Shown: in pieces, positions 3,955-43,167 of the stretch
How the letters are laid out: each line of letters opens with the position of its first letter
Position numbering within the stretch: the stretch's first letter is position 1
Source of the DNA: a virus
Length of the DNA stretch: 64,000 bases
Reading direction: 5' to 3' (one strand)
IMG/VR virus record: IMGVR_UViG_3300033145_001047
Location: 1 to 64,000 of that record
Notes under the pieces: generated by a model
The model's input: only the letters and a program-made list of their open reading frames with translations
Database searches by the model: none
What the model was told of the DNA's origin: nothing
Program-made: the position numbers and the translations under genes

Positions 3955-6900
3955 TTACCATCCCGAGACCTGGACTATCTGTACACCGCCCGGTCCTTCC
4001 GCCGCCTCGAAGTTCAGCGGCATGTCCGGCTCGAAGGATTCCGAAGTCGCCACGCTATCAGATACATCTATAATCATCTCCCTGTCCATGAATATCCACT
4101 CGACCGTCGTGACGGTTTCGGATACGCTTGGAACAAGAACGTCCGGGTACGCTTCCGCGAACTCCGCCACGAAGTTGTACTCAGCAACGATTCCGACCTC
4201 TATCACCAGGTCGACTACCTGAGCAACCTCGTTTATGACGATCATCATAGGCTGGACGACGAAGAAGTTCAGGACGTCCAGTCTCAGGTCGACCACCACA
4301 TCAGTCACAGCCACGTCGTCGAATACCGGCCCGAGTTCGATGGTGATGTCCACGACCTCGACGTCCTCGGTCACGGTGACGTCTTCCCCGGCCTGGAGGA
4401 ACAACTCGTCGAGCACCAGCCCCACGTTCTCCAGGACCTCCAGCGCCTCGAACGCCTCCAGTTCGACCGTGAGGTCCAGGAGTTCGACGTACTCGGAGAG
4501 GGTCACGACCTCGGTCACTATCCCCAGTTCGATAATCAGGTCGTGCATCACAGCCACGTCGGTCACGGCTATGATCTCGAAGTGCTCCGTGCACAGTTCC
4601 GGCAGCAGGACCGTCAGGTCCTCCACCACGGTGATGTCCTCGCTCAGGACCGGCAGCTCGATAATGATGTCCAGGAGATAGGTCCACTCGGTGACGGTCA
4701 GGGTGTCAGAGACCGATATGAAGAACTCACTCAGGGCCACGTTTGCGTTCTCGACGACCGTGAGGTCCTCGGATACCGACAGCTCCACTATGATGTCGTG
4801 CAACACCACGGCCTCTGTTGCAACGATATCGTCCCCCGCTGCAACGAACAGGGCGTCCAGTGAAACAGTTATGGTCTCCGTTGCAACAGCTTCGTCGGAA
4901 GCGGCAAGCTCCACCGTGATGTCCAACAGGTTCACCCACTCGACCACGGTCGATGTATCGAAGACGAACAGCTCGACGGTAATGTCCAGGAGGTTCGCCC
5001 ACTCCGTAACGGTCAGGGTCTCACTCTCTGAGACGTTCAGGAAGCCCAGGGAGACATCCGCCTGTTCGGTAACCGCGACCAGGTCCACCACCGGCCCGAG
5101 TTCGATCATGATGTCCGTCATGAGAACGACCTCGGCCACCGTCACCGTGTCGAATACGTTCAGGAACAACTCGTCCAGGTAGGCCGTCGCCTGTTCGGTC
5201 ACGGTCACAACATCGAAGACAACAGGGAGGTCGATCACTATATCGAGCAGAGACACCCACTCGACTATATTGAGAGCGTCGCTCACGTCTACGTTGAGCA
5301 CGTCCAGGCCCACCGTCACGTTCTCAGTGAGAGCGACCTCCTCCGTCGCCGGTCCCAGTTCGATCACGATGTCGGTCATTATCGCCACTTCCGCGATACT
5401 CACCTGGTCGCTGAGGGAGAGACTCAGCACGTCGAGGTAGGCTGTGACGTCCTCCGTCGTTGCTACCTCGTCGAATACCAGGGGCATCTCTATGACGATG
5501 TCGAGGAGCTGCACATCCTCGACCACCGCAATTATCTCCGAGACCTCCAAGTCTATGAACAGGTCGAGCAGGAAGACCCACTCGGCCACCGTTATCGTAT
5601 CGCTGACGTCGAGCCCTATCTCCAGGGTCCGCGTGAATACGGTCGAGGCTTCCTCCCAGTATATGAAGCAGCTATGACTCTCGTCCTCCGTCTTGCTGAC
5701 ATCACTCCGGGTCATGGTCGCGGTCGTCTCGGCCATAGCGAGAATCGGACCCAGGATGTGCCCGGTCTTGTGCAGTAGCCTCACGTAGAACTGATTATTG
5801 TCGTCACCGTGTGGCCTGTCCCATGCGAATACCAGGTAGTCTCCGAACGTACCTATGCCGGGATGTTCGCAGTCGGTGTTCGCGTCGAGAACTACCTCGG
5901 CACCCAGTCCGCCCACAGGCTCCCACTCCCTTGAGATACATGTCCCGTCACTCTTCACGTACACCATATCGACGTGACCGTTCACGTCGTCGAAGTTCAG
6001 CTCGAACTGGTGCGCCACCAATGACTGCGGGGATATTTTCAGCACCGCTATGTTCGTCGGCGAAGCGTCCCACGTTCCGTCGAACTCCTTGTACTGTAAC
6101 TGGGTCCCCTCGACATAGGCGCATACCACCTGGAAGTTCGTCGGCGGAGATAGCGGCAGCGAGTGCATGAGAGCGGAGAAGGACTCGCCCTCGTTGTTCG
6201 TGTCTCCGAGCGTCGCCGCCGAGTCCCACGACGTTATGTTCCCAGGGCCGGACCTCTTGACTACCGCGTACTGTTTCGCACCGTCCTTCTCAGTCGCCGA
6301 GGCCCAGTATCGGTTACTCTGTGTCCGGGAAATGTTCGGACGTGAGTACGTCTTCGACACGTCGGTCCATATTGTATTCGCGGCACTCCACGCGAAACTC
6401 GTGCTCGGGTAGCTTGTCGCTTCCCTTATGAGGACGTCGCCGCCTTGCGTGTATACGATCACGAGGGAGGACGCCTTCGCATATATCGAGAAGTCGTTGA
6501 GCACGTTCGAGTCACTGATTCTCGCCCCGGTGTTTTCCGCCCACGCATTGTCCGGGTCTGTCGTGTAGTCGACCTGTATGTATCCGCCGGTTCGGTTGAA
6601 CCACGCTCTCCAGTAGTACGTCCCGTCAAACCACGCGGCACTCTGACAACAGTAGGGTATCTCCCCGGAGTTCGTGGTCACGTCCTCGACCACGTCGGCC
6701 ACGCTGACGGTCTCGGCCACGACACCTATCTCGATCACCAGGTCGACGACGCTCACCGACTCAGTGACCAGGACATCGTCCCCGGCCACGATGTTCAGCG
6801 CCGAGAGGAACGCGGAGGCGCTCTCCGTCGTCGTGATCTCGTCATACACCGCCAGGTCGATCACTAGGTCGAGGAGCTGCACCCACTCCGCCACGCCGAC

Positions 6901-9900
6901 GTTGTCCGAGACCTCGGGCACCAGAACGTCGAGGAGCATGGTGACGTTTTCCGTCACCACCGCCAGGTCGACCGCCGGGCCGAGTTCCACTACGAGGTCA
7001 GTCATGAGAGCGACCTCGGCCACGCTAACGTCTTCACCGGCCTGGAGGTACAGCTCCGGCAGCGTGAGAGTCACGTTTTCGACAGCCGCGACGATATCGT
7101 ATACCACCGGCAGCTCTATAGTTATGTCAAGAAGTTCGACGTATTCGCTGTGAGCGACGTTTTCGGAAACAGCCACTACCAGCTCGGGCAGCAGGACCGT
7201 CGTCGCCTCAGCAGCCAGCACGTCGTCAGAGACAGCCAGAAACAAGGCGTCCGGTAGGAGTCCCACGTTCTCGACCGCGCCGACGACATCGGCCACCACC
7301 CCGAGTTCGATCACCAGGTCGTGAGTGACAACGACCTCGGTGACCAGCAGGTCCTCCCCCACGGAGACGTTCAGGAGGTCCAGGTTGAGGGTCAGCTCCT
7401 CCAGGACAGTGACCTCGTCATAACTCAGGGGCAACTCCAGGATTATGTCAAGCAGTTCCACGTACTCGGCGACAGTGCCCTCGTCGTAGACGGCCAGGTA
7501 CAGCTCGGTGATGGACAGCTCGACCGACTCGACCGCAGCAGCCAGGTCGAAGGCCGACAGCTCCACGGTGATATCGAGGAGATGGACCCACTCTGCAGCA
7601 GCAGCCACGTCGTACACCGACAGGTTCAGCACGTCCAGGCCGACGGTCGCGCTCTCCGTCACGCTGACCGGGTCCATGACCACACCGACCTCCACCACCA
7701 GGTCCACCACGGAAACGGACTCCGTTATCAGGACGTGGAATGGGTCGAGCACCAGGAAGTTCAGGACGTCGAGGTACTGGGTCATGCTCTCCGCAACGGT
7801 CGCCACATCGAAGGCCAGGAAGTTGAGCCCGAGGTCCTCCATTGTGACGTTCTCGACCACGCTGCTCGTGTCGAAGACGCTCGGCACCAGGGCGTCCAAG
7901 AGAGGGGTGACGTCCTCGGTGATCGTCGGTTCGTCGAACACCAAGAGGTTGAGCTGGTCCAGCGAGGACGTCACATCCTCCAGCACAGTCACCAGGTCCA
8001 CAGCCGGACCCACTTCGACCACCAGGTCGGTAAGGAGCGGTACCTCAGCGATAGAGACCGTGTCGAAGATATCGACATTCAACTCACCAAGAGACACGGC
8101 TGCGCTTTCAGTAGTCGTCACGTCGTCGTTGACATTGATATCCATACCCATGTAGGGCTCGATATTCTCTAGAACCGCCACCGCGTCGAAGACGACAGGA
8201 AGGTCTATCACGATGTCATGGAGCTGAACATTCTCTACGACACCGATGCTATCGAAGACGCTGACGCTCATCAAGACGTCGGTGCTTACTGATTCCGTTG
8301 TCGCCACGGCATCAAATACACTAGCGTATAGTTCGTCGAGTGAGACGGTAACCGATTCACTCACCGCTGACGTATCGGCTACAATCCCTATCTCTACCAT
8401 CAGGTCGACCACACTCACGGACTCGGTAATCGTCACCGTGTCGGATGTAGCCACCTGTAGTTCCCCCAGTAGCACCGTCACGCTTTCGGTTGCCGTCGCC
8501 TCGTCGTAGACAGAGAGGTGGATGGAGTCGAGGTATGCTGTGATGTTCTCTGATACAGACGCGAGGTCAACAGCCGGACCCAACTCGACGACCAGGTCGT
8601 TCAGGCCAGGCACGTCTACAACGCCCACCGCGTCGAAGGTGCCGATGTTCAGCACATCGACGGAGACCACGACGTTCTCCGTCACCGTCGCTGTATCGAA
8701 CACGCCGAGAGCCCCTTCCACGGTGAGCACGGTGTTCTCGACCACCACCACGGTATCGAACACCACCGGGAGGTCCACGACGATATCGAGGAGCTGGACG
8801 TTCTCTTCGACGCTTGCAATATCGAAGACGACGACATCCACAAGGACGTCGGCGCTCACGGTTTCCGTGATCGTCAGCTCCTCGCTTTCTTCTATATATA
8901 GGGCGTCGAGGGAAGTGGTCGCGGACTCCGTAACCCCCACGGTCTCGGCGACCACCCCGACCTCGACTACGATATCGACAACGCTGACGGACTCGGTGAT
9001 GGTCACCGTGTCGGAGACGTTGGCGTTCAGCGCGTCGATGGACAGCGTCACGTCTTCCAGGACGCCCGGCTCGTCGAACACGACCGGCACGCCCACCACC
9101 AGGTCGAGCAGCTCGACGTATTCGGTCACCGCTGCCGTGTCGTTCACGTCCAGGTTCAGGACATCGAGCACAGCCGTCAGGTCCTCAGTGACCGCGACCG
9201 CGCCGAACACCAGCGGCATCTCGACCGTGATGTCTACAACCTCCACATCCTCCGTGATGCTGACCGTGTCGCTCACGTCGACGCCGATAGAGAGGTCAAG
9301 GGCTACCGGGGTAGCGTCGTAGGCCTCTGTGGGTGGCGTGAAAGCTGCGGTCCACCTAGCAACCCCTTTAGAGATTCTGAGTTCGTCAACCCATCCGTCA
9401 AGGTAACTCACCGACGTCGCGCCGAATTCAAAACGACCCATGTAAATTCCAAAAGATTCGGCGCGGTTGTAGACTATTCCGGTCGCATCTTGTGTCGTAC
9501 CCACCTGCGTTCCGTCGACCCAGAACTGGACGTCATCCCCGCTGCGAGTAACCGCTACGTGATACCACGTTGCGGTCGATGGGCTAGGTGTCCACGATAC
9601 GCTCAGTGATTGCTGAGAGCCGCCGTCATAATGATCGAGTACTAGATTACCAGCGGTGCGGTCGTATAATAGACTCCATCCTGATTCCCTCGGGCCACTT
9701 CCTCTTACACCTCTACCTTCGCCTACCAGTCTATACTGAGTGGACGAAAACGAATTAAATCTAACGCAACATTCTAGCGTAAAATCATCTGTGCCGAGGT
9801 CCCAGTCAGCGTCGTCAGGACTCGTCAAGTAATCTCCGTTACCGTCAAGTATCAAACTCGACGGCCCAAACTTCTTTTGGGCCGTGTCGAGTTGTGCGTC

Positions 9901-11358
9901 CCCGTCGAAGGTTAGCGCGTGACCGCTCGGGCTGCTATCGTACGAGCTTGTCGCTCCATCTGTCCCGTCGAAGTGCAGGAGCAATTTTGTATACGAATCT
10001 GAATCCACAACGCCGATTTCCTCGCAGACATCCGTGAACAAGGCGTCCAGGTAAGCCCCCAGGTTCTCCGCTATGGACAGAGTGTCCGCAACGACGCCCA
10101 CCTCCACCACCAGGTCGACGACGGACACGCTCTCCGTTATCAGGAAGTCCTCGAACACGCTGGTGTTCATCTCGTCGAGGTACGCTTCCACCGCCGACTC
10201 TGTGATGGTCAGGTTTTCAGCCAGCTCGATGTTAAGGACATCGAGGTCCACGGTCACGTCTTCCAGGATATTCAGGACGTCGCTGGCGTCGACGCCGACG
10301 CCTATAGAGGCGTCGGCTCCCTCCCGCGTCTCGTGAGTCTGGAACACAAAGAACGTGCTCGGGCTGTTCTGATTCGCGTACTCAGTCGCAACCCAATTTG
10401 CAGAATGACCCGTCCCTTTAATTACTCTTACTTCATCAATAATGCCGTCCCAGAAGTTTGTGGTCCCGACTCCTTGACCACCTATTTTCAAGTCAGTAGT
10501 ACCGGCAGGAAACGCCGAGCTATCATCCTCTGTAGCGGTCTGAGCATCGTCTTGATACAATGTGAACGTGTCGCCGACTCTCGTGAGAGTAATCAACTGC
10601 CACGTACCTACTGGAGATTCATCACCAACCAAGTCAACCGAAGGAGTACCGCACCAGAATCTAACCGCCAGTGAAGTAGCGGAAACGCTCTCACCCATGA
10701 ACTCAAAGCTGCCGGTGCTCGAACGATACATGACGAAATTGTTATTTGCGCCTTGTTGCGATTCCTTCTTGATCCACATTGAAAGCGTTATATCTTCACT
10801 TCCAAAGTCCCACTCGGGCGAGTCGGGGGCGGTCAAATAATCATTATCACCGGACTCAAAGTCCTGGCCGTCTGCGATTTTCCCAGCAATGTCAACCGAG
10901 CCGGTATTTGTTAGCGTATGCCCGTTACCTGACGAATCAAGAAGGCTATTATTCAAATGCCATACCGCTGAGAAATCAGACCAGACCCCACTCGCGTTTT
11001 GCTGGTCGGTCGCATCCGGATTCCCGCAATACATCCAGACATATCCGTCCGACGCGCTCGTTGCGCTCGTTAGTTTCACCCAGGCCCACAACTCCCCGGT
11101 GGAGTTGTCGTAGTCCTCAATCTCATGGTCCAGCTTGTTGCCATTCAAGTCGGTGAACAGGATGTCGTACCCGTCAGACCTTGCCTTGTCCCGGAGGTAG
11201 TTGCTCGTGATGTGCACCAGGGCCGGGAAATCGGCGTGCGTTCCCGTTATCTGCTCTTTCGGTATCTTGTACTTCTCTCGGTCGGACCATCCAACACCGT
11301 GCCAACCGTCGGGCATTGCGTAGACTTCGTCGAACACCAGGATATTCAGGTCAGCCAT
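3955..11358 (-). CDS. 2467-residue giant repeat protein with DUF2341, two LamG-like domains and a propeller-like domain
   Basis: Residues 1 to about 110 match the DUF2341 type (DREKYKIPK, FPALVHI, DGYVWMYCGNPDA). Residues about 120-350 form a LamG/concanavalin-type fold (VWHLNNSLLDSSGNGHTL, WQLITLTR, WDGIIDEVRV). About 100 residues of repeat follow. A second LamG-like domain spans roughly residues 452-679 (LLLHFDGTDGA, WYHVAVTRSGDDVQFWVDG, DGWVDELRISKGVAR). Repeats of 20-26 residues, consensus SDTVTVTEyVeLLDIvvEL, fill about 680-1560 and 1915-2400. A non-repeat, BNR/propeller-like block rich in Trp and Tyr occupies about 1560-1910. LamG folds bind glycans, so this is likely a receptor-binding or decoration fibre. 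The start is preceded by an unusual leader and terminator (11351-11467). The LamG coding stretches look AT-richer than the repeats, suggesting later insertion. Confidence 0.8.
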   Translation of the reverse strand: MADLNILVFDEVYAMPDGWHGVGWSDREKYKIPKEQITGTHADFPALVHITSNYLRDKARSDGYDILFTDLNGNKLDHEIEDYDNSTGELWAWVKLTSATSASDGYVWMYCGNPDATDQQNASGVWSDFSAVWHLNNSLLDSSGNGHTLTNTGSVDIAGKIADGQDFESGDNDYLTAPDSPEWDFGSEDITLSMWIKKESQQGANNNFVMYRSSTGSFEFMGESVSATSLAVRFWCGTPSVDLVGDESPVGTWQLITLTRVGDTFTLYQDDAQTATEDDSSAFPAGTTDLKIGGQGVGTTNFWDGIIDEVRVIKGTGHSANWVATEYANQNSPSTFFVFQTHETREGADASIGVGVDASDVLNILEDVTVDLDVLNIELAENLTITESAVEAYLDEMNTSVFEDFLITESVSVVDLVVEVGVVADTLSIAENLGAYLDALFTDVCEEIGVVDSDSYTKLLLHFDGTDGATSSYDSSPSGHALTFDGDAQLDTAQKKFGPSSLILDGNGDYLTSPDDADWDLGTDDFTLECCVRFNSFSSTQYRLVGEGRGVRGSGPRESGWSLLYDRTAGNLVLDHYDGGSQQSLSVSWTPSPSTATWYHVAVTRSGDDVQFWVDGTQVGTTQDATGIVYNRAESFGIYMGRFEFGATSVSYLDGWVDELRISKGVARWTAAFTPPTEAYDATPVALDLSIGVDVSDTVSITEDVEVVDITVEMPLVFGAVAVTEDLTAVLDVLNLDVNDTAAVTEYVELLDLVVGVPVVFDEPGVLEDVTLSIDALNANVSDTVTITESVSVVDIVVEVGVVAETVGVTESATTSLDALYIEESEELTITETVSADVLVDVVVFDIASVEENVQLLDIVVDLPVVFDTVVVVENTVLTVEGALGVFDTATVTENVVVSVDVLNIGTFDAVGVVDVPGLNDLVVELGPAVDLASVSENITAYLDSIHLSVYDEATATESVTVLLGELQVATSDTVTITESVSVVDLMVEIGIVADTSAVSESVTVSLDELYASVFDAVATTESVSTDVLMSVSVFDSIGVVENVQLHDIVIDLPVVFDAVAVLENIEPYMGMDINVNDDVTTTESAAVSLGELNVDIFDTVSIAEVPLLTDLVVEVGPAVDLVTVLEDVTSSLDQLNLLVFDEPTITEDVTPLLDALVPSVFDTSSVVENVTMEDLGLNFLAFDVATVAESMTQYLDVLNFLVLDPFHVLITESVSVVDLVVEVGVVMDPVSVTESATVGLDVLNLSVYDVAAAAEWVHLLDITVELSAFDLAAAVESVELSITELYLAVYDEGTVAEYVELLDIILELPLSYDEVTVLEELTLNLDLLNVSVGEDLLVTEVVVTHDLVIELGVVADVVGAVENVGLLPDALFLAVSDDVLAAEATTVLLPELVVAVSENVAHSEYVELLDITIELPVVYDIVAAVENVTLTLPELYLQAGEDVSVAEVALMTDLVVELGPAVDLAVVTENVTMLLDVLVPEVSDNVGVAEWVQLLDLVIDLAVYDEITTTESASAFLSALNIVAGDDVLVTESVSVVDLVIEIGVVAETVSVADVVEDVTTNSGEIPYCCQSAAWFDGTYYWRAWFNRTGGYIQVDYTTDPDNAWAENTGARISDSNVLNDFSIYAKASSLVIVYTQGGDVLIREATSYPSTSFAWSAANTIWTDVSKTYSRPNISRTQSNRYWASATEKDGAKQYAVVKRSGPGNITSWDSAATLGDTNNEGESFSALMHSLPLSPPTNFQVVCAYVEGTQLQYKEFDGTWDASPTNIAVLKISPQSLVAHQFELNFDDVNGHVDMVYVKSDGTCISREWEPVGGLGAEVVLDANTDCEHPGIGTFGDYLVFAWDRPHGDDNNQFYVRLLHKTGHILGPILAMAETTATMTRSDVSKTEDESHSCFIYWEEASTVFTRTLEIGLDVSDTITVAEWVFLLDLFIDLEVSEIIAVVEDVQLLDIVIEMPLVFDEVATTEDVTAYLDVLSLSLSDQVSIAEVAIMTDIVIELGPATEEVALTENVTVGLDVLNVDVSDALNIVEWVSLLDIVIDLPVVFDVVTVTEQATAYLDELFLNVFDTVTVAEVVLMTDIMIELGPVVDLVAVTEQADVSLGFLNVSESETLTVTEWANLLDITVELFVFDTSTVVEWVNLLDITVELAASDEAVATETITVSLDALFVAAGDDIVATEAVVLHDIIVELSVSEDLTVVENANVALSEFFISVSDTLTVTEWTYLLDIIIELPVLSEDITVVEDLTVLLPELCTEHFEIIAVTDVAVMHDLIIELGIVTEVVTLSEYVELLDLTVELEAFEALEVLENVGLVLDELFLQAGEDVTVTEDVEVVDITIELGPVFDDVAVTDVVVDLRLDVLNFFVVQPMMIVINEVAQVVDLVIEVGIVAEYNFVAEFAEAYPDVLVPSVSETVTTVEWIFMDREMIIDVSDSVATSESFEPDMPLNFEAAEGPGGVQIVQVSGW

Positions 11359-11871: not shown

Positions 11872-12690
11872 CTACGGGAACATCTGACCGTGCTCATTTA
11901 TATGTCGGCAAAAAATTGACGTGTCCAAAAGGAAGGGCCACTTCTTCTTCTGGAACTTCGGCCACCCGGCCCTCGCCAAGACTTTCTCCTTTATGATCCT
12001 GTCATTCCACCACAGATCCTCCGTCCCTACTTTCGTATTGTAGCGGCCTTGCTCAGGATCATACCATGCTTTCCTCGGGGTCTCGAACACTCGACGGACC
12101 ACGACCGGCCCGGCGATTGTCTGCAGCGTGTAGACCTCCGACTCGTCGTACATCAGCTTGATTATCGAGCCGTGAATGAGACAGCACCCTAGCGGGATTC
12201 CATCGACCCACACCTTGTCCCCCTGTTCCCAGTCCATATAGCATGAGCTACCGCGCCCTCGGAACAACAGAGGCTCCGGGTGCGTTCCCTTGCAGTAGTA
12301 GAGACCGCTCACTATCGGGATATCTCCCTTGAGCATGTAGTCGTTAATCTTCAAGAACGTATCGGGGGGAAGGATAACGTCATGGTCGATAAAAAACAGC
12401 CACTCGAATTCCTGGTCGATGAAGTATTGGACGCACACGTTCCGCGCATCGGCAACAGCCCATCCCATCGGACTATACTGGTCCATGAACTGAAAGATAT
12501 CGCCCTGACTCCAGTTGCAGGGAATCACCTGTCCGAATCGAGCCATCATCCACTCGACGCGGACGAGCCCGGTCGTCGGCACGGCCATACATATACGTTT
12601 CTGCCACCCTTCCCACTCCGACGACTTCGGGACCCCCATATCCGGGATGTGCAGCGTCTTCGAGGACTTCTTAGTTTGTTTCTTCGACAC
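11872..12690 (-). CDS. Glycosyltransferase, GT-A fold
   Basis: 272 residues. The segment WLFFIDHDVILPPDTF near residue 97 carries an acidic DxD-type motif (DHD) typical of metal-dependent GT-A glycosyltransferases. It is preceded by an Rxxx-rich segment (ADARNVCVQYFI) and followed by YYCKG and a C-terminal EDLWWNDRI acidic segment that could supply the catalytic base. A GTG start with GGAGGTG overlaps the methyltransferase gene by 20 bases. It should transfer a sugar from a nucleotide donor, and virion proteins or host wall polymers are candidate acceptors. Placement beside the giant fibre genes and a methyltransferase fits modification of a virion glycan, but the substrate cannot be read from sequence. 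Confidence 0.7.
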   Translation of the reverse strand: MSKKQTKKSSKTLHIPDMGVPKSSEWEGWQKRICMAVPTTGLVRVEWMMARFGQVIPCNWSQGDIFQFMDQYSPMGWAVADARNVCVQYFIDQEFEWLFFIDHDVILPPDTFLKINDYMLKGDIPIVSGLYYCKGTHPEPLLFRGRGSSCYMDWEQGDKVWVDGIPLGCCLIHGSIIKLMYDESEVYTLQTIAGPVVVRRVFETPRKAWYDPEQGRYNTKVGTEDLWWNDRIIKEKVLARAGWPKFQKKKWPFLLDTSIFCRHINEHGQMFP

Positions 12691-13210
12691 GCGGCACCTC
12701 CTTCATCTTTTCCAGAATCACTTCCATGTTGCCGCCGAAGTTGTGAACATTTTTGACAGTCTTCCACGGCCTCGGCTTGTAGACGTTGAACAGCTCTCTA
12801 TTGGGCTGCGCCGTTGGATCGAAGTAAGCGATTGACGCCTCGTTCAGAGCGCAGCAATGGGAAGGGTCCTGCACATATCCGAAGCTGTTCCCATACGGAA
12901 AGCCGAGCCATAGCTGTCCGCCGACTTTCATGAGCCTCCACCACTCATTCATCACGCCCATGATCTTCTTCGGGCAGATATGCTCTATCAGGTGACTCGC
13001 CAGGATGGTGTGACAGCACTCGTCCGGCAGCGGGTAGGGTACGGTCTCGACGTCGTGAACGATGTCAACCCCATCGAGCGCCCTGATATCGAGGCCGACG
13101 AAATTTTCTTGTTTGTTTTCGCCACACCCCACGTCCAGCTTGATACCCTGATTGTGTTTTTTCAACAGGGCCAAGATATTTCTCGGCAGCTTGACCACCT
13201 TCTTTCTCAT
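12671..13210 (-). CDS. Class I SAM-dependent methyltransferase
   Basis: 179 residues. Motif I KLDVGCGENK lies near residues 24-33 and an acidic VGLDI follows as the strand-2 end that binds ribose. A motif IV-like segment (ASHLIEHI) and a strand-5 GGQLWLGFPYG also fit the small Methyltransf_11-like fold. The start overlaps the HNH gene stop by four bases (ATGA), and its end overlaps the glycosyltransferase start. Sugar or small-molecule methylation is the likely role, given the glycosyltransferase partner. The acceptor is unknown. Confidence 0.8.
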   Translation of the reverse strand: MRKKVVKLPRNILALLKKHNQGIKLDVGCGENKQENFVGLDIRALDGVDIVHDVETVPYPLPDECCHTILASHLIEHICPKKIMGVMNEWWRLMKVGGQLWLGFPYGNSFGYVQDPSHCCALNEASIAYFDPTAQPNRELFNVYKPRPWKTVKNVHNFGGNMEVILEKMKEVPRVEETN

Positions 13211-13974
13211 GATCTCCTTTCTTTCTTGGCGCTCATTTCTTTCTCGCCGTAGTCGATTATTCTCCTCAACAGCTCGGATACGGATATCCCCTTCTTGTTC
13301 GCAGTGCTGCGTAGGAATTTGACATTGTTTTCTGTAATGCTAATCATTCTTCTGACCATCTTTTCAGCGGTCTTTTTTAGCGTATATACAAATGACGATC
13401 TTTTTCGTTTGTGTTTTGTCATATCAATTTCACTTGCCTTGACTTCGTGTGTATCTATTCCCGCCAATGTTGGAAAGTTCAGGTTAGCAAACGCACCTCG
13501 CAACTCAATCGCCTTCATGTCTCGTGCTACAGCAGCTTCCTCTGGAGTATCAAATGCACCCAAACGGTGAATCTTGCCACAATGCACAATTTTTGCACGA
13601 TATCTATTGTTACACAGAAGCACACCAATATAACCGCTTTGGGAAGCTTTGTGTGCATGTAAATTGCGGTGATTTTCCAAAGATGTACACACCCTGAGAT
13701 TTATTTTCCGGTTATCTGTTGGGTCTCCATTGATGTGGTCTACCATCGCTGCAGGAAATCCTAATATCTGTTGTTGCATGAAAATTCTTACCGATCCTTT
13801 CCCGTCTTTTTTAAGTCTTCTTCGCCCTGCTCTGCCACAACCGGCATTTCCGTCAGAACAATAGTACCAATTATGCTTCAAAAGTTCTGGTGCCTCCGCA
13901 ATATCAACAAGAGCATATTTCCCTTGCGTTAGCGGAATCTTAGTATATTTGATATCGTTCTGCATTTCACCCAT
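13207..13974 (-). CDS. HNH homing endonuclease with AP2-like domain and ribbon-helix-helix-like tail
   Basis: 255 residues. The N-terminal half has an HNH_3-type core (AAMVDHINGDPTDNRKINLR, with NHRNL following). Residues about 115-165 match the AP2-type DNA-binding segment of phage homing endonucleases (SGYIGVLLCNNRYRAKI ... LGAFDTPEEAAVARD). The last 50 residues (MISITENNVKFLRSTA ... GISVSELLRRIIDYG) look like a ribbon-helix-helix domain, which is not standard in this class. The gene is clearly AT-richer than its neighbours, a sign of transfer. The start codon overlaps the stop of a 26-residue leader ORF (TAATG), right after a terminator-like hairpin. Confidence 0.85.
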   Translation of the reverse strand: MGEMQNDIKYTKIPLTQGKYALVDIAEAPELLKHNWYYCSDGNAGCGRAGRRRLKKDGKGSVRIFMQQQILGFPAAMVDHINGDPTDNRKINLRVCTSLENHRNLHAHKASQSGYIGVLLCNNRYRAKIVHCGKIHRLGAFDTPEEAAVARDMKAIELRGAFANLNFPTLAGIDTHEVKASEIDMTKHKRKRSSFVYTLKKTAEKMVRRMISITENNVKFLRSTANKKGISVSELLRRIIDYGEKEMSAKKERRS

Positions 13975-14054
13975 TAAAAAGACCCGCCGATCATCGGGAA
14001 GATGAACGCCAATAGGCGTGTTATCGGCGGGCTTTCAAACATGTTATAAGGCAT
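13974..14054 (-). CDS. Putative 26-residue leader peptide overlapping the HNH start
   Basis: ATG at 14054 follows GGGAGGATGA. The frame encodes MPYNMFESPPITRLLAFIFP and six more residues and crosses the entire hairpin at 13976-14031. It stops with TAA at 13974-13976, so that TAATG joins its stop to the HNH start. The HNH ATG has no good ribosome site of its own, so reinitiation from this leader is plausible. The layout matches the leader at 11351-11467. Confidence 0.4.
   Translation of the reverse strand: MPYNMFESPPITRLLAFIFPMIGGSF
13976..14031 (-). terminator. Terminator-like branched hairpin before the HNH gene
   Basis: On the minus strand, CCCGCCGAT (14031-14023) pairs with ATCGGCGGG (13991-13983), followed by TCTTTTT. 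Inside, ACGCC and GGCGT form a second stem with a TATT loop. It ends two bases before the HNH start codon, so it can act as attenuator or as a ribosome-blocking element for that gene. Confidence 0.7.
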
Positions 14055-14075
14055 TCATCCTCCCAGTTCACAACA

Positions 14076-14104
14076 ATACTATACCAAGAATATACGTGCG
14101 TCAA
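14076..14104 (-). promoter_or_regulatory. Candidate promoter for leader and AP2-HNH gene
   Basis: On the minus strand TTGACG (14104-14099) is followed by 17 bases and TAGTAT, or by 15 bases and TATAGT. It lies just past the end of the upstream HNH gene and about 20-45 bases before the 26-residue leader ORF. The context GACTTGACG is also found in the candidate promoter at 57059-57087. Confidence 0.4.
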
Positions 14105-14124
14105 GTCTTGAGGAAGGAGATGTG

Positions 14125-14802
14125 CTATTTTTTGCGCTTGGCCAGGAACAGCCGGGCAGCTTCCTTGTGCCCTCTGAGGGGAACTCCCAGTTCTTCGAGA
14201 TACCGCTTGACCTTGTTCTTGTGCCAGCCAAGCTCCTCCGCAATATGCCGGAACGATCTCCTCTCTTTGGTGTATTCCTTCTTTATCCAGACAGCGTCGC
14301 AATCATCGTACAAGTGCTTTCTCGGCTTCTTCGCCCGTGCGCCCTTCTTTCTTGCTTCAAGGGCTGCGGCGGTCATGGTGTATCTTCTTCTTTCGACATC
14401 TATCTTCTTTAGAGCGTAGAGGACAAGAGTGTGGTCGCATCCCAGCTCGGCTGCTATGTCAGTGACGCTTCTCTTCTTCCTGCCATACTCAGTCTTGAGC
14501 CAAGCCTTCTCATATAGCCGTGGATATTTTATCGCGCCATGTCTCCTGTTCAGATGTTCCTGACTTGACGCAAACAGTTCAAGATTCTCAAGTAAATTGT
14601 TCTCCTTGTTTTCGTCACGATGATGGACGACCTCTTTCTTTGTCAGAAGCCTTCCAATTTCCTTCTCCATCACTAGACGATGGTGCATTACCTTTCGCCC
14701 TGGGTGTGGATATCCGGACGGCTTGGTCACCATGATATAGCCGTCCTGCATGAGCTTGTAGCCCGTCAATGAATCGAGGTCGAGTTTCTTGATACCAAAC
14801 AT
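14125..14802 (-). CDS. HNH homing endonuclease with helix-turn-helix repeats
   Basis: 225 residues. An HNH_3-type core sits at about residues 36-85 (RKVMHHRLVMEKEIGR, EVVHHRDENKENNLLENLEL). Two HTH-like segments follow (SVTDIAAELGCDHTLVLYAL and SFRHIAEELGWHKNKVKRYL), probably for target recognition. This is the usual layout of free-standing phage homing endonucleases. It lies directly downstream of the tail gene that holds the two group I introns, separated by a terminator and its own promoter. The gene is less GC-rich than its surroundings. Confidence 0.87.
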   Translation of the reverse strand: MFGIKKLDLDSLTGYKLMQDGYIMVTKPSGYPHPGRKVMHHRLVMEKEIGRLLTKKEVVHHRDENKENNLLENLELFASSQEHLNRRHGAIKYPRLYEKAWLKTEYGRKKRSVTDIAAELGCDHTLVLYALKKIDVERRRYTMTAAALEARKKGARAKKPRKHLYDDCDAVWIKKEYTKERRSFRHIAEELGWHKNKVKRYLEELGVPLRGHKEAARLFLAKRKK

Positions 14803-14913: not shown

Positions 14914-15861
14914 TCAACTGAACCTGAGCTGATACGTGGCGTTCCATAACTTGTTACTCTCGCTTAACGTACGTTACGCAGCGAGGGCGACATCATCTCT
15001 GTGTCGCTCTGCATGTCGCCATGCAGTTCGGACTGTCCCTTCAACTCCCATCGAGAGTGTCCCCCGTCCAGTCTCTACACCTTCCTCTGCATCCGCAAAG
15101 GCTTGGCTCGGGATTGTCTCCTCTCGGAGGTGTTCCCCGAATTTGAGGGATTTGCTTCTCACCGTCACCGGTGAGTGACGCAAACACTTTACGTTTTGGT
15201 TAGCAAGATTGTTACTCCCACCACGAGTGGTGAGGACGATGTCGTTTCCGCATCGTTCTACGAGTCGCCCCGCAGTTCGGACTGTCCCTTCAACTCCCTT
15301 ACGGAGTGTCCTCCATCCAGTCTCTACGCCTTCCCTGATTACTCTCAGGGCTTGGTTCGGGATTGTCTCCTTGACAGCAAGGAGGTGTTCCCCGACTTTG
15401 AAGGATACTTTGAGCAATGTCACCATTGCCCGGCGCCATAACCATAACGCCCACTGACTTGTGGCATACGTCGTTCCGCACAGAATCGTCCCGCCCGCGC
15501 TGGTGTTAGCCAGTGCCACGTTCTGAATCGTGCATGTTCCGCCCATGTCCGAACCGGCGAACTGGGCCGTGCACTGCAGCGTCTTCGAGGACACCGCTGT
15601 ATTCGTGCTCGTCACACGTGCGCCCGTCTCTCCTTCGAGGGACGTGCCCGCTGCTCCCGGAGCCGTTCCGGTTCCGATAGCCATGTGACTCACCTGTTTG
15701 CTACCGGCGACTGCCCCGAGGGAGCCGACGATGTAATCCTGGAAGCCGAGGTTCACCACGGTGTTCTCCCTCCAGCCAGAATCACCGACGATCTTCCCGG
15801 ACTTCTCGTCTACCATCTGTAGACGCAAGAAACCTTTGACCTTCAACATGTCACTATTCAC
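14914..15861 (-). CDS. Tail/virion protein gene interrupted by two group I introns
   Basis: Proposed exons, in transcription order, are 15861-15446, 15214-15191 (24 bases) and 14971-14914. Together they total 498 bases, 165 residues plus stop. Exon 1 holds a phage structural pattern (SHMAIGTGTAPGAAGTSLEGE; TCTIQNVALANTSAGGTILC). The joined end reads ATSQWAFNNLANQNVTLSES and then NKLWNATYQLRFS, typical of the closing beta strands of such proteins. The GTG start overlaps the upstream glycosyltransferase stop and has GGGGGTGA before it. Without splicing the frame stays open through intron 1 and stops within intron 2 at 14974, which would give a 295-residue protein. Splice sites are predicted from P1 pairing, terminal G and frame. 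Confidence 0.75.
14972..15190 (-). ncRNA. Group I intron 2 in the tail protein gene
   Basis: 219 bases. The 5' site is marked by ACGT of exon 2 pairing with GCGT, with U-G at the cut. P2 is CTCACCG-GTGA-CGGTGAG. The conserved core includes TCGGGGAACACC, GAGACAATCCCGAGCCAAG, GTGTAGAGACTGGACG and AAGGGACAGTCC. P9 is CTGCATGGCGACATGCAG, almost the P9 of the T4 td intron as I recall it. The intron ends with G at 14972. No endonuclease is encoded inside. The P1 helix is short (four pairs), so the exact 5' site is less sure than for intron 1. Confidence 0.8.
15215..15445 (-). ncRNA. Group I intron 1 in the tail protein gene
   Basis: 231 bases. Exon 1 ends GGCGTT, which pairs with the internal guide GGCGCC (15437-15432), with U-G at the splice site. 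P2 (GCAATG-GTGA-CATTGC) has a GTGA loop as in td-type introns. The core shares long identical stretches with intron 2: TCGGGGAACACCTCC, GGAGACAATCCCGA and GTTGAAGGGACAGTCCGAAC. P9 is CTGCGGG-GCGA-CTCGTAG, and two further 3' hairpins precede the terminal G at 15215. The length is a multiple of three and the frame contains no stop. It is probably subgroup IA, judged by similarity to td. Confidence 0.85.
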
Positions 15862-16610
15862 TTTCTATCACCCCCTTCGGTGTTCATGAGTAGCTCTGTC
15901 TCCTTGACCTTCCGTCTGTTCTCGTACCGGACCAGGGTCCGTTCGAGAAAGGCCGAGCTGTACTTGAACCGGAGACGCTTCTCCGCTTCGCTTTCCAGCT
16001 CTTCATGTACCCGAGCTATACAGCCCTTCTTCGTCCCCCCTCCTACGTGGAGGACATCAGTCGTGTAGCAGTACCCGGTCTTCCACCAGTCCGACCACTC
16101 CAGCCTGGTGAAGAACTCGCGGTCCTCCCCCAGGTAGAACTTCGGGTCGAACGACCCGAGGTCAGCCAAGCATTTCCGGCGGACCATGCAGAAGGAAAGA
16201 CTTCCGAAGGTGGCCACTCCCGACTCGTCATGTACCCTCGCCTCTATGAGGCCGATGTGGTCGTCTATGACATAATTCCACATCTTGTCGACCCATTCCG
16301 GGTCCTGTACTTCGACGTCGCTGTCGATCATGGCCACCCACTCAGCCCGTCCTACCGCCAGGCCGCGCCGTCGTCCTTCGCCGACGCCGACGTTCTTCTG
16401 GCATGTGACCAGGTGCCCTACTACCTCACTGTCAAAGAGCCATTCCTTCGAGCCGTCCTTCGACTTCTGGTCGACGACGACAAGAGTATAGTGTCCCGCC
16501 GTTGTCTCCTGCACTGACCGGATACATCTCTCGACATACCCGGCGTTGTTGCAGTTCAAGATTAGGACGTCAATCGCGTCCGCTATTTTCGCCACTCTTC
16601 CGGCATCCAT
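15858..16610 (-). CDS. Family 2-type glycosyltransferase
   Basis: 250 residues. The N-terminus shows the GT2 opening (DVLILNCNNAGYVERCIRSV), followed by VVVDQKSKDGS and a DxD metal site in WVAMIDSDVEV near residue 95. LGEDREFFTRLEW near residue 175 supplies an ED-type catalytic acidic pair. It should use a nucleotide sugar to modify a protein or glycan. It lies between the major capsid gene and the intron-bearing tail gene, in the same operon, so a virion protein is the likely acceptor. The phage also encodes nucleotide-sugar enzymes (29063-32596) that could make its donor. The acceptor is an inference. Confidence 0.82.
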   Translation of the reverse strand: MDAGRVAKIADAIDVLILNCNNAGYVERCIRSVQETTAGHYTLVVVDQKSKDGSKEWLFDSEVVGHLVTCQKNVGVGEGRRRGLAVGRAEWVAMIDSDVEVQDPEWVDKMWNYVIDDHIGLIEARVHDESGVATFGSLSFCMVRRKCLADLGSFDPKFYLGEDREFFTRLEWSDWWKTGYCYTTDVLHVGGGTKKGCIARVHEELESEAEKRLRFKYSSAFLERTLVRYENRRKVKETELLMNTEGGDRK

Positions 16611-42723: not shown

Positions 42724-43167
42724 CTATCCCCCTTTGATTCCGATGGTCGCCGCCGGGTAGTTCTTTCGTGTCTCTTCCTCAGCACTTTCCCAACAGCTCG
42801 GACACAGCGTCGCGTATCCGTGGGCCTCCTCGAACGCTATGCCGCAAGCGAGACACCGACGCCCGTTCTGCATGTCGGCATCCAGCTCGGAGAGTCTCTT
42901 GTCCTTGAGTCGTTGCTCGGACTCGCGGACCTTCTTCCGTATGTTCTGCAGCGCCTTCAACGCCCCGGTCACGATGTCCTTCTTGAACTCGGGGAACTTC
43001 TTAATGATGTCGCGGACGTGCATGTCTGCTTCCGTCGCCGCCTTGTCGAAGTCGTTCGACCGGGCCAGCTCCGCGAAGTACACGGCCTTCACCGACTCCC
43101 GGACCTTCTTCCCGGCCCGTCGTCCCTCAGCTCGTCGCTGCTTCCTGCTCTTGAACTGCAGTTTCAC
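42724..43167 (-). CDS. Basic protein with C-terminal zinc finger
   Basis: 147 residues from GTG 43167. The start is very basic (KSRKQRRAEGRRAGKK) and helical. The C-terminus has RCLACGIAFEEAHGYATLCP followed by SC, a zinc ribbon. It could bind DNA. No family is recognised. Confidence 0.6.
   Translation of the reverse strand: MKLQFKSRKQRRAEGRRAGKKVRESVKAVYFAELARSNDFDKAATEADMHVRDIIKKFPEFKKDIVTGALKALQNIRKKVRESEQRLKDKRLSELDADMQNGRRCLACGIAFEEAHGYATLCPSCWESAEEETRKNYPAATIGIKGG

What the first reader, a model, noticed from the sequence alone, without database searches (positions are those of the whole stretch)
13207..14802. Two free-standing HNH genes sit beside the introns that lack endonucleases
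Seen: the introns encode no endonuclease, but two HNH_3-type genes lie directly downstream. Known: in some phages a separate homing endonuclease cuts the intron insertion site (collaborative homing). Inference: these enzymes may mobilise the two introns or protect the locus.
Basis: inference. Interest (0 to 1): 0.7.

Follow-up and report, generated by a model that had tools for sequence, protein, structure and literature searches.

The report
HNH genes beside endonuclease-less phage introns
A phage gene split by two tiny self-splicing introns is followed by two free-standing DNA-cutting (homing) genes; relatives show that such genes settle at this spot with or without introns, so they may help the introns spread, but their cutting sites still have to be measured.

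Summary
Observation confirmed. On the minus strand of an 86-kb IMG/VR phage record, two intact HNH_3 genes (14125-14802, HNH2; 13207-13974, HNH1) lie just downstream of a gene split by two ORF-less group I introns (243 and 246 nt) around a 13-nt exon. Intronless relatives fix the splice sites.

Interpretation partly supported. HNH2 orthologues sit in the same slot behind the INTRONLESS gene in four relatives, so HNH2 does not depend on the introns. HNH1 is a private HNH-AP2 insertion fused to a small ribbon-helix-helix-like gene, probably a passenger.

[quoted passage not shown] A third has an intron with its own endonuclease and no HNH behind it. Scorable ORF-less-intron loci: 3/3 with an HNH; intronless close relatives: 8/28 (p about 0.03-0.04, not phylogeny-corrected). 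The four intron positions fall within about 25 nt.

Best reading: HNH2 is a resident homing gene of this hotspot and a plausible collaborative-homing partner of the introns. Cleavage sites are untested.

The parts
15447..15849 (-). Exon 1 of the interrupted virion-type gene (EX), from ATG 15849 (an upstream GTG at 15861 is also possible) to ...CAGTGGGCGT
   Evidence: Intronless relatives L004, L006-L016, L084 align through the C-terminal end ...TSQWASNQNVNATYQLRFS; P1 helix with U.G at the splice site
15204..15446 (-). Group I intron 1, 243 nt, no endonuclease ORF
   Evidence: RF00028 47.7 bits at 15456-15258; boundaries from spliced-protein match
15191..15203 (-). Exon 2, 13 nt: CTAACCAAAACGT
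   Evidence: Spliced codons A-S-N-Q-N-V match the SNQNV of close relatives
14945..15190 (-). Group I intron 2, 246 nt, 77% identical to intron 1 over 176 nt
   Evidence: RF00028 55.3 bits, 15200-15009; for intron-intron identity
14914..14944 (-). Exon 3 (GAACGCCACGTATCAG...TGA) with stop codon
14862..14895 (-). Terminator-like hairpin between EX and HNH2 (13-pair stem, then T-run)
   Evidence: number of such sites in the region is not above shuffles
14125..14802 (-). HNH2: free-standing HNH_3 endonuclease with two helix-turn-helix repeats; good ribosome-binding site (GGGAGG)
   Evidence: Pfam/PHROGs; orthologues in L008, L009, L010, L084 at the same place
14539..14700 (-). HNH domain of HNH2 (residues 35-88) with conserved catalytic-type H/N residues in the five full copies
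14164..14301 (-). Second HTH of HNH2 (residues 168-213), the best conserved part (61% mean pairwise identity against 51% for HNH and about 35% elsewhere)
13207..13974 (-). HNH1: HNH-AP2 endonuclease with C-terminal ribbon-helix-helix-like domain; starts directly behind a hairpin plus T-run, with no clear ribosome-binding site
13207..13359 (-). RHH-like C-terminal part of HNH1, aligned to the free-standing 45-aa ORF L008:7194-7331 at the same place in an intronless relative
   Evidence: weak RHH_1 match E 0.024
12671..13210 (-). Methyltransferase gene (conserved right-hand neighbour), overlapping HNH1 by 4 nt (ATGA)
   Evidence: Pfam Methyltransf_11 4.1e-5; conserved order EX-(HNH)-MT-GT1 in relatives

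Best explanation
The 3' flank of this virion-protein gene is a settling place for free-standing homing endonuclease genes, and the last codons of the gene are a settling place for group I introns. HNH2 is an old, optional resident of the slot between EX and the methyltransferase gene. I think it most likely nicks or cuts the conserved 3' end of EX in phages that lack it. The two sister introns then inserted into that same stretch in this phage lineage. They now remove the target from its own genome and can be copied together with HNH2 into intronless, HNH-less co-infecting phages (collaborative homing). HNH1 is a separate, recent HNH-AP2 insertion fused in frame to a small RHH-like gene and is probably not the introns' partner. 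Shown: gene identities, intron boundaries, intronless HNH2+ relatives, recurrence of the anatomy elsewhere. Inferred: target of HNH2, order of arrival, co-mobility.
For: Both introns lack an ORF and split the most conserved end of the gene. HNH2 is optional between two conserved genes: present in L008, L009, L010, L084; absent in L004, L006, L012, L015, L016. Its catalytic-type residues and second HTH are the best conserved parts, as expected for a maintained enzyme with a shared target. The same anatomy with an HNH of a different type right behind the gene occurs in L221 and L225. L191 has an intron-encoded NUMOD3-like/DUF559-Vsr endonuclease and no HNH next door. Scorable ORF-less-intron loci 3/3 with an adjacent HNH against 8/28 intronless close relatives, Fisher p 0.037. 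HNH_3 domains cluster near related introns generally.
Against: HNH2 orthologues live beside intronless EX genes, so they survive without intron protection. Exon-junction DNA is neither more similar to the window nor more drifted in HNH2+ than in HNH2- genomes (same for L225 relatives). Only three scorable loci, about two independent events. HNH2 could as well cut the methyltransferase gene or elsewhere.
Confidence: 0.5

Rival explanations
1. Two independent parasites share a hotspot: HNH genes home into the EX/methyltransferase gap using targets of their own, and introns insert into the conserved EX end by another route (reverse splicing, recombination, or a lost endonuclease). There is no functional coupling.
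For: HNH2 beside intronless EX in four relatives, and the other HNH type beside intronless EX in L237/L239, L249, L253. No co-conversion signal. The two introns are 77% identical and sit 13 nt apart, which local reverse splicing could explain without any DNA endonuclease.
Against: ORF-less introns in this gene family are found only where an HNH gene is adjacent (3/3 scorable loci), and the intron with its own endonuclease lacks one.
Confidence: 0.35
2. Endonuclease turnover: the introns once carried their own endonuclease, lost it, and a free-standing HNH gene took the vacant role or merely the place (alternative proposed in PMC10448857).
For: L191 shows an intron in the same gene family with an internal endonuclease. 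The closest outside intron, in L202/L226 (75% over 133 nt), sits in a region with an HTH-HTH-HNH ORF between ribozyme core and the next exon-like frame.
Against: HNH2 is at the locus in relatives that have no intron at all, so it need not have come after an intron. Window introns are compact, with no ORF remnant.
Confidence: 0.1
3. HNH1, not HNH2, is the partner of the introns: both are private to this phage among the 14 genomes compared.
For: HNH1 has no counterpart at this place in the relatives, and neither have the introns.
Against: HNH1 lies farther away, behind HNH2 and a hairpin, with no clear ribosome-binding site. Its nearest homologues sit in loci without group I introns. It belongs to a very widespread HNH-AP2 family, 1565 phage records.
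Confidence: 0.1

Closest known systems
Cyanophage S-PM2 psbA group I intron with free-standing F-CphI (collaborative homing; PMC6083498)
   Same: ORF-less group I intron in a gene, free-standing endonuclease gene adjacent
   Different: F-CphI has an Endo VII motif, not HNH_3; its cleavage of intronless psbA was demonstrated, here nothing is; here two introns; here the endonuclease gene also occurs beside intronless alleles
T4/Aeh1-type free-standing HNH Mob endonucleases, e.g. mobE beside nrdB (PMC2988022)
   Same: Optional HNH gene between conserved phage genes; mobE can mobilise the nrdB intron in trans
   Different: Different DNA-binding parts (two HTH in HNH2; AP2 plus RHH-like in HNH1); activity unknown here
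ICP1 terminase intron with adjacent T5orf172 nuclease gene (PMC10448857)
   Same: Intron plus free-standing nuclease gene next to the split gene
   Different: Different nuclease family, different gene
L221 (IMGVR 3300031227_000085) and L225 (IMGVR 3300027742_000027)
   Same: Same virion-protein superfamily, ORF-less group I intron in the last codons, free-standing HNH directly behind
   Different: One intron at a different codon (Trp, T^GG); HNH of another type (zinc-ribbon-like, PF01844)

Membership tests
Group I intron | Catalytic core matches the RF00028 model | tested here: met
   55.3 bits and 47.7 bits (cut-off 50; the second is just below it, E 1.5e-10)
Group I intron | P1 helix with U.G at the 5' splice site and terminal G at the 3' end | tested here: met
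   P1 folds at both sites with U.G; both introns end in G
Group I intron | Self-splicing | not testable with these tools
   No RNA data; precise removal restores the conserved protein end
Free-standing HNH homing endonuclease | Intact HNH motif | tested here: met
   HNH_3 in both; conserved residues across HNH2 orthologues
Free-standing HNH homing endonuclease | DNA-binding module | tested here: met
   Two HTH repeats in HNH2 (weak sequence matches); AP2-like in HNH1
Free-standing HNH homing endonuclease | Optional gene between conserved neighbours | tested here: met
   HNH2 present or absent between EX and MT in relatives; HNH1 absent from that place in all of them
Free-standing HNH homing endonuclease | Cuts or nicks the HNH-less allele and is inherited preferentially | not testable with these tools
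   Needs protein and phage crosses
Collaborative homing pair (F-CphI type) | ORF-less intron next to a free-standing endonuclease gene | tested here: met
Collaborative homing pair (F-CphI type) | Endonuclease target spans the intron insertion site in the intronless allele | not testable with these tools
   No binding or cleavage data
Collaborative homing pair (F-CphI type) | Intron blocks self-cleavage | tested here: inconclusive
   Intronless genomes with HNH2 exist, so the intron is not required for survival; their sites could be resistant

The most novel reading that the evidence does not exclude
One virion gene family is a repeated assembly site of collaborative-homing pairs. Different endonuclease genes (HTH-HNH, zinc-ribbon-like HNH, HNH-AP2) settle behind the gene, and group I introns insert at four positions within about 25 nt of its last codons. 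The stages 'enzyme only', 'enzyme plus ORF-less intron' and 'intron with internal enzyme' are all visible in living relatives.
Probability: 0.4. Interest if true: 0.72.

Novelty: new member of a known kind. Interest (0 to 1): 0.55.

Why it matters
How introns and homing endonucleases come together is an old question with few worked cases (psbA/F-CphI, nrdB/mobE, T7-like DNA polymerase). Here a single gene family offers natural alleles of every stage: empty, HNH only, HNH plus ORF-less intron, and intron with internal endonuclease. The two orders of assembly can therefore be tested with a handful of purified enzymes and synthetic alleles.

Tried and rejected
My first splice model (24-nt exon 2, used in the query) was wrong; intronless relatives showed a 13-nt exon. 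The exon gene has no relative in the named phage collection. An exact intron-core pattern gave no other IMG/VR copy; looser patterns gave mostly unrelated hosts. Co-conversion or site-drift signal around the junction: none. The idea that HNH1's C-terminal domain is common in HNH-AP2 proteins was not borne out by L092. HNH1 homologue loci hold no group I introns. A 37-nt intron-like match at 42864-42900 is not an intron. The HNH2 structure model is of low confidence (pLDDT 66) and was not used. The EX fold has only weak PDB matches, to phage connector and baseplate-arm proteins (E 5e-3).

Full report
OBSERVATION. The window is part of an 86,167-base virus record. On the minus strand the order is glycosyltransferase (15858-16610), an interrupted gene here called EX (15849-14914), HNH2 (14802-14125), HNH1 (13974-13207), methyltransferase (13210-12671), a second glycosyltransferase-like gene (12690-11872). 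Both HNH genes score above the Pfam HNH_3 cut-off, and no other HNH_3 gene is in the record.

INTRONS. Rfam finds two group I introns. The boundaries were fixed by comparison: thirteen IMG/VR relatives (L004, L006-L016, L084; 57-84% identical proteins) have the gene uninterrupted, and the ten closest end in an identical TSQWASNQNVNATYQLRFS. Joining ...CAGTGGGCGT + CTAACCAAAACGT + GAACGCCACGTATCAG... restores exactly that end. Intron 1 is 15446-15204 (243 nt), exon 2 is 13 nt (15203-15191), intron 2 is 15190-14945 (246 nt). Both introns end in G, and both 5' sites form a P1 helix with the required U.G pair. The introns are 77% identical over 176 nt and closer to each other than to any other intron found, so they look like sisters. 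No group I intron was found in the 13 relative records, all possibly incomplete.

HNH2. Orthologues with 34-47% identity occupy exactly the EX-methyltransferase gap in L008, L009, L010 and L084, all with an intronless EX. L013 keeps only an HTH part, and L007 has a different small ORF there. L004, L006, L012, L015 and L016 have no HNH in the gap. Within the family the HNH motif (51% mean pairwise identity) and above all the second HTH (61%, with RSFR.I.EE.GWHKNKVK.Y invariant) are conserved, other parts about 35%. This is what a maintained enzyme with a shared DNA target would show; the target itself is inference.

HNH1. It is an HNH-AP2 protein of a very widespread family (1565 phage records; AP2 matches in the PDB). 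None of the relatives has it at this place. Its C-terminal 50 residues match a free-standing 45-aa ORF in L008 at the same position, overlapping the methyltransferase start by four bases as HNH1 does. So HNH1 most likely arrived upstream of, and fused with, a small RHH-like gene. The RHH assignment itself is weak (E 0.024). Loci of its nearest homologues contain no group I intron.

THE SAME ANATOMY ELSEWHERE. A pattern search for related intron cores brought in records with no prior link to the gene. In two of them, L225 and L221, the intron lies in the last codons of a distant EX homologue (colinear C-terminus TFSVINKGASDTLQITWTVTFG against TYATSQWASNQNVNATYQLRFS), splitting the Trp codon. 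A free-standing HNH gene of another type begins about 25 nt (L221) or about 130 nt (L225) behind the stop codon. L243 has the same intron but its contig ends. L191 has a 906-nt intron at a fourth position (GAT^ACC) that encodes its own endonuclease (DUF559 1.1e-9, Vsr 5e-6); it is followed directly by a glycosyltransferase-like gene, with no HNH. All five introns checked have the U.G pair in P1. Aligned by protein, the four insertion positions fall within about 25 nt.

ASSOCIATION. Among close relatives with sequence downstream, ORF-less-intron loci have an adjacent HNH in 3 of 3, intronless loci in 8 of 28 (L008, L009, L010, L084, L237, L239, L249, L253): Fisher p 0.037; 0.030 with the duplicate pair L237/L239 counted once. 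The groups were drawn after seeing the data, relatedness is not corrected for, and the three loci are about two independent events. This is suggestive only. In 50 other intron-bearing records HNH_3 domains are enriched within 1 kb of introns (9 against 1.1 expected), but some of those HNHs may be intron-encoded.

MECHANISM. The literature describes collaborative homing: a free-standing endonuclease cuts the intronless allele at the intron site, the intron protects the donor, and both are copied (PMC6083498; PMC2988022; PMC10448857). Here the enzyme-only genomes show that HNH2 can live at the locus without introns, which fits an enzyme that was there before the introns. It also means that protection by the introns is not essential. 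Tests for drift or co-conversion at the junction were negative. My estimate: 0.5 that HNH2 targets the EX end and helps the introns, 0.35 that introns and HNH genes merely share a hotspot, 0.1 that HNH1 is the partner, 0.1 endonuclease turnover (not fully exclusive).

NOVELTY. The arrangement is of a known kind. New are this member with two sister introns around a 13-nt exon, and the recurrence at one virion gene family with different endonucleases. Small exons and exon skipping between phage group I introns have precedents (PMC11878797; Twort, cited in PMC3073962).

LIMITS. All sequences are metagenomic contigs without RNA data. Splice sites are inferred, though from two independent criteria. 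No cleavage evidence exists for any of these enzymes.

Noticed in passing
15191-15203 (-): Exon 2 is only 13 nt; skipping it would join GCG T to GA..., an immediate TGA stop that removes the last 14 residues.
   Followed up: partly
14974-15861 (-): Both introns are multiples of three long (243, 246 nt), and intron 1 and most of intron 2 are open in the exon frame, so the unspliced message would encode a 295-aa product.
   Followed up: no
L191 4215-5120 (-): EX-family gene with a 906-nt group I intron that encodes a NUMOD3-like/DUF559-Vsr-type endonuclease at a fourth insertion position.
   Followed up: yes
L226 3170-4020: Closest outside relative of the window introns (75% over 133 nt) lies in a capsid-type gene, with an HTH-HTH-HNH ORF between the ribozyme core and the next exon-like frame; apparently intron-encoded.
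   Followed up: partly
L204 (MH598807.1 19433-20607): Pelagibacter phage HTVC120P: two adjacent 'capsid protein' CDS with intron-like DNA between them, probably one capsid gene split by an unannotated group I intron.
   Followed up: no
13975-14035 (-): HNH1's start codon follows a GC-rich hairpin and T-run by one base, with no clear ribosome-binding site; expression may be kept low.
   Followed up: no
L218 2080-2612: Another record (G026) with two group I introns about 75 nt apart by model coordinates and an HNH ORF just downstream.
   Followed up: no
3955-11358 (-): 2467-aa protein with many repeats of the type 'VTITESVSVVDLVVEVGVV', plus inserted lectin-like segments.
   Followed up: no
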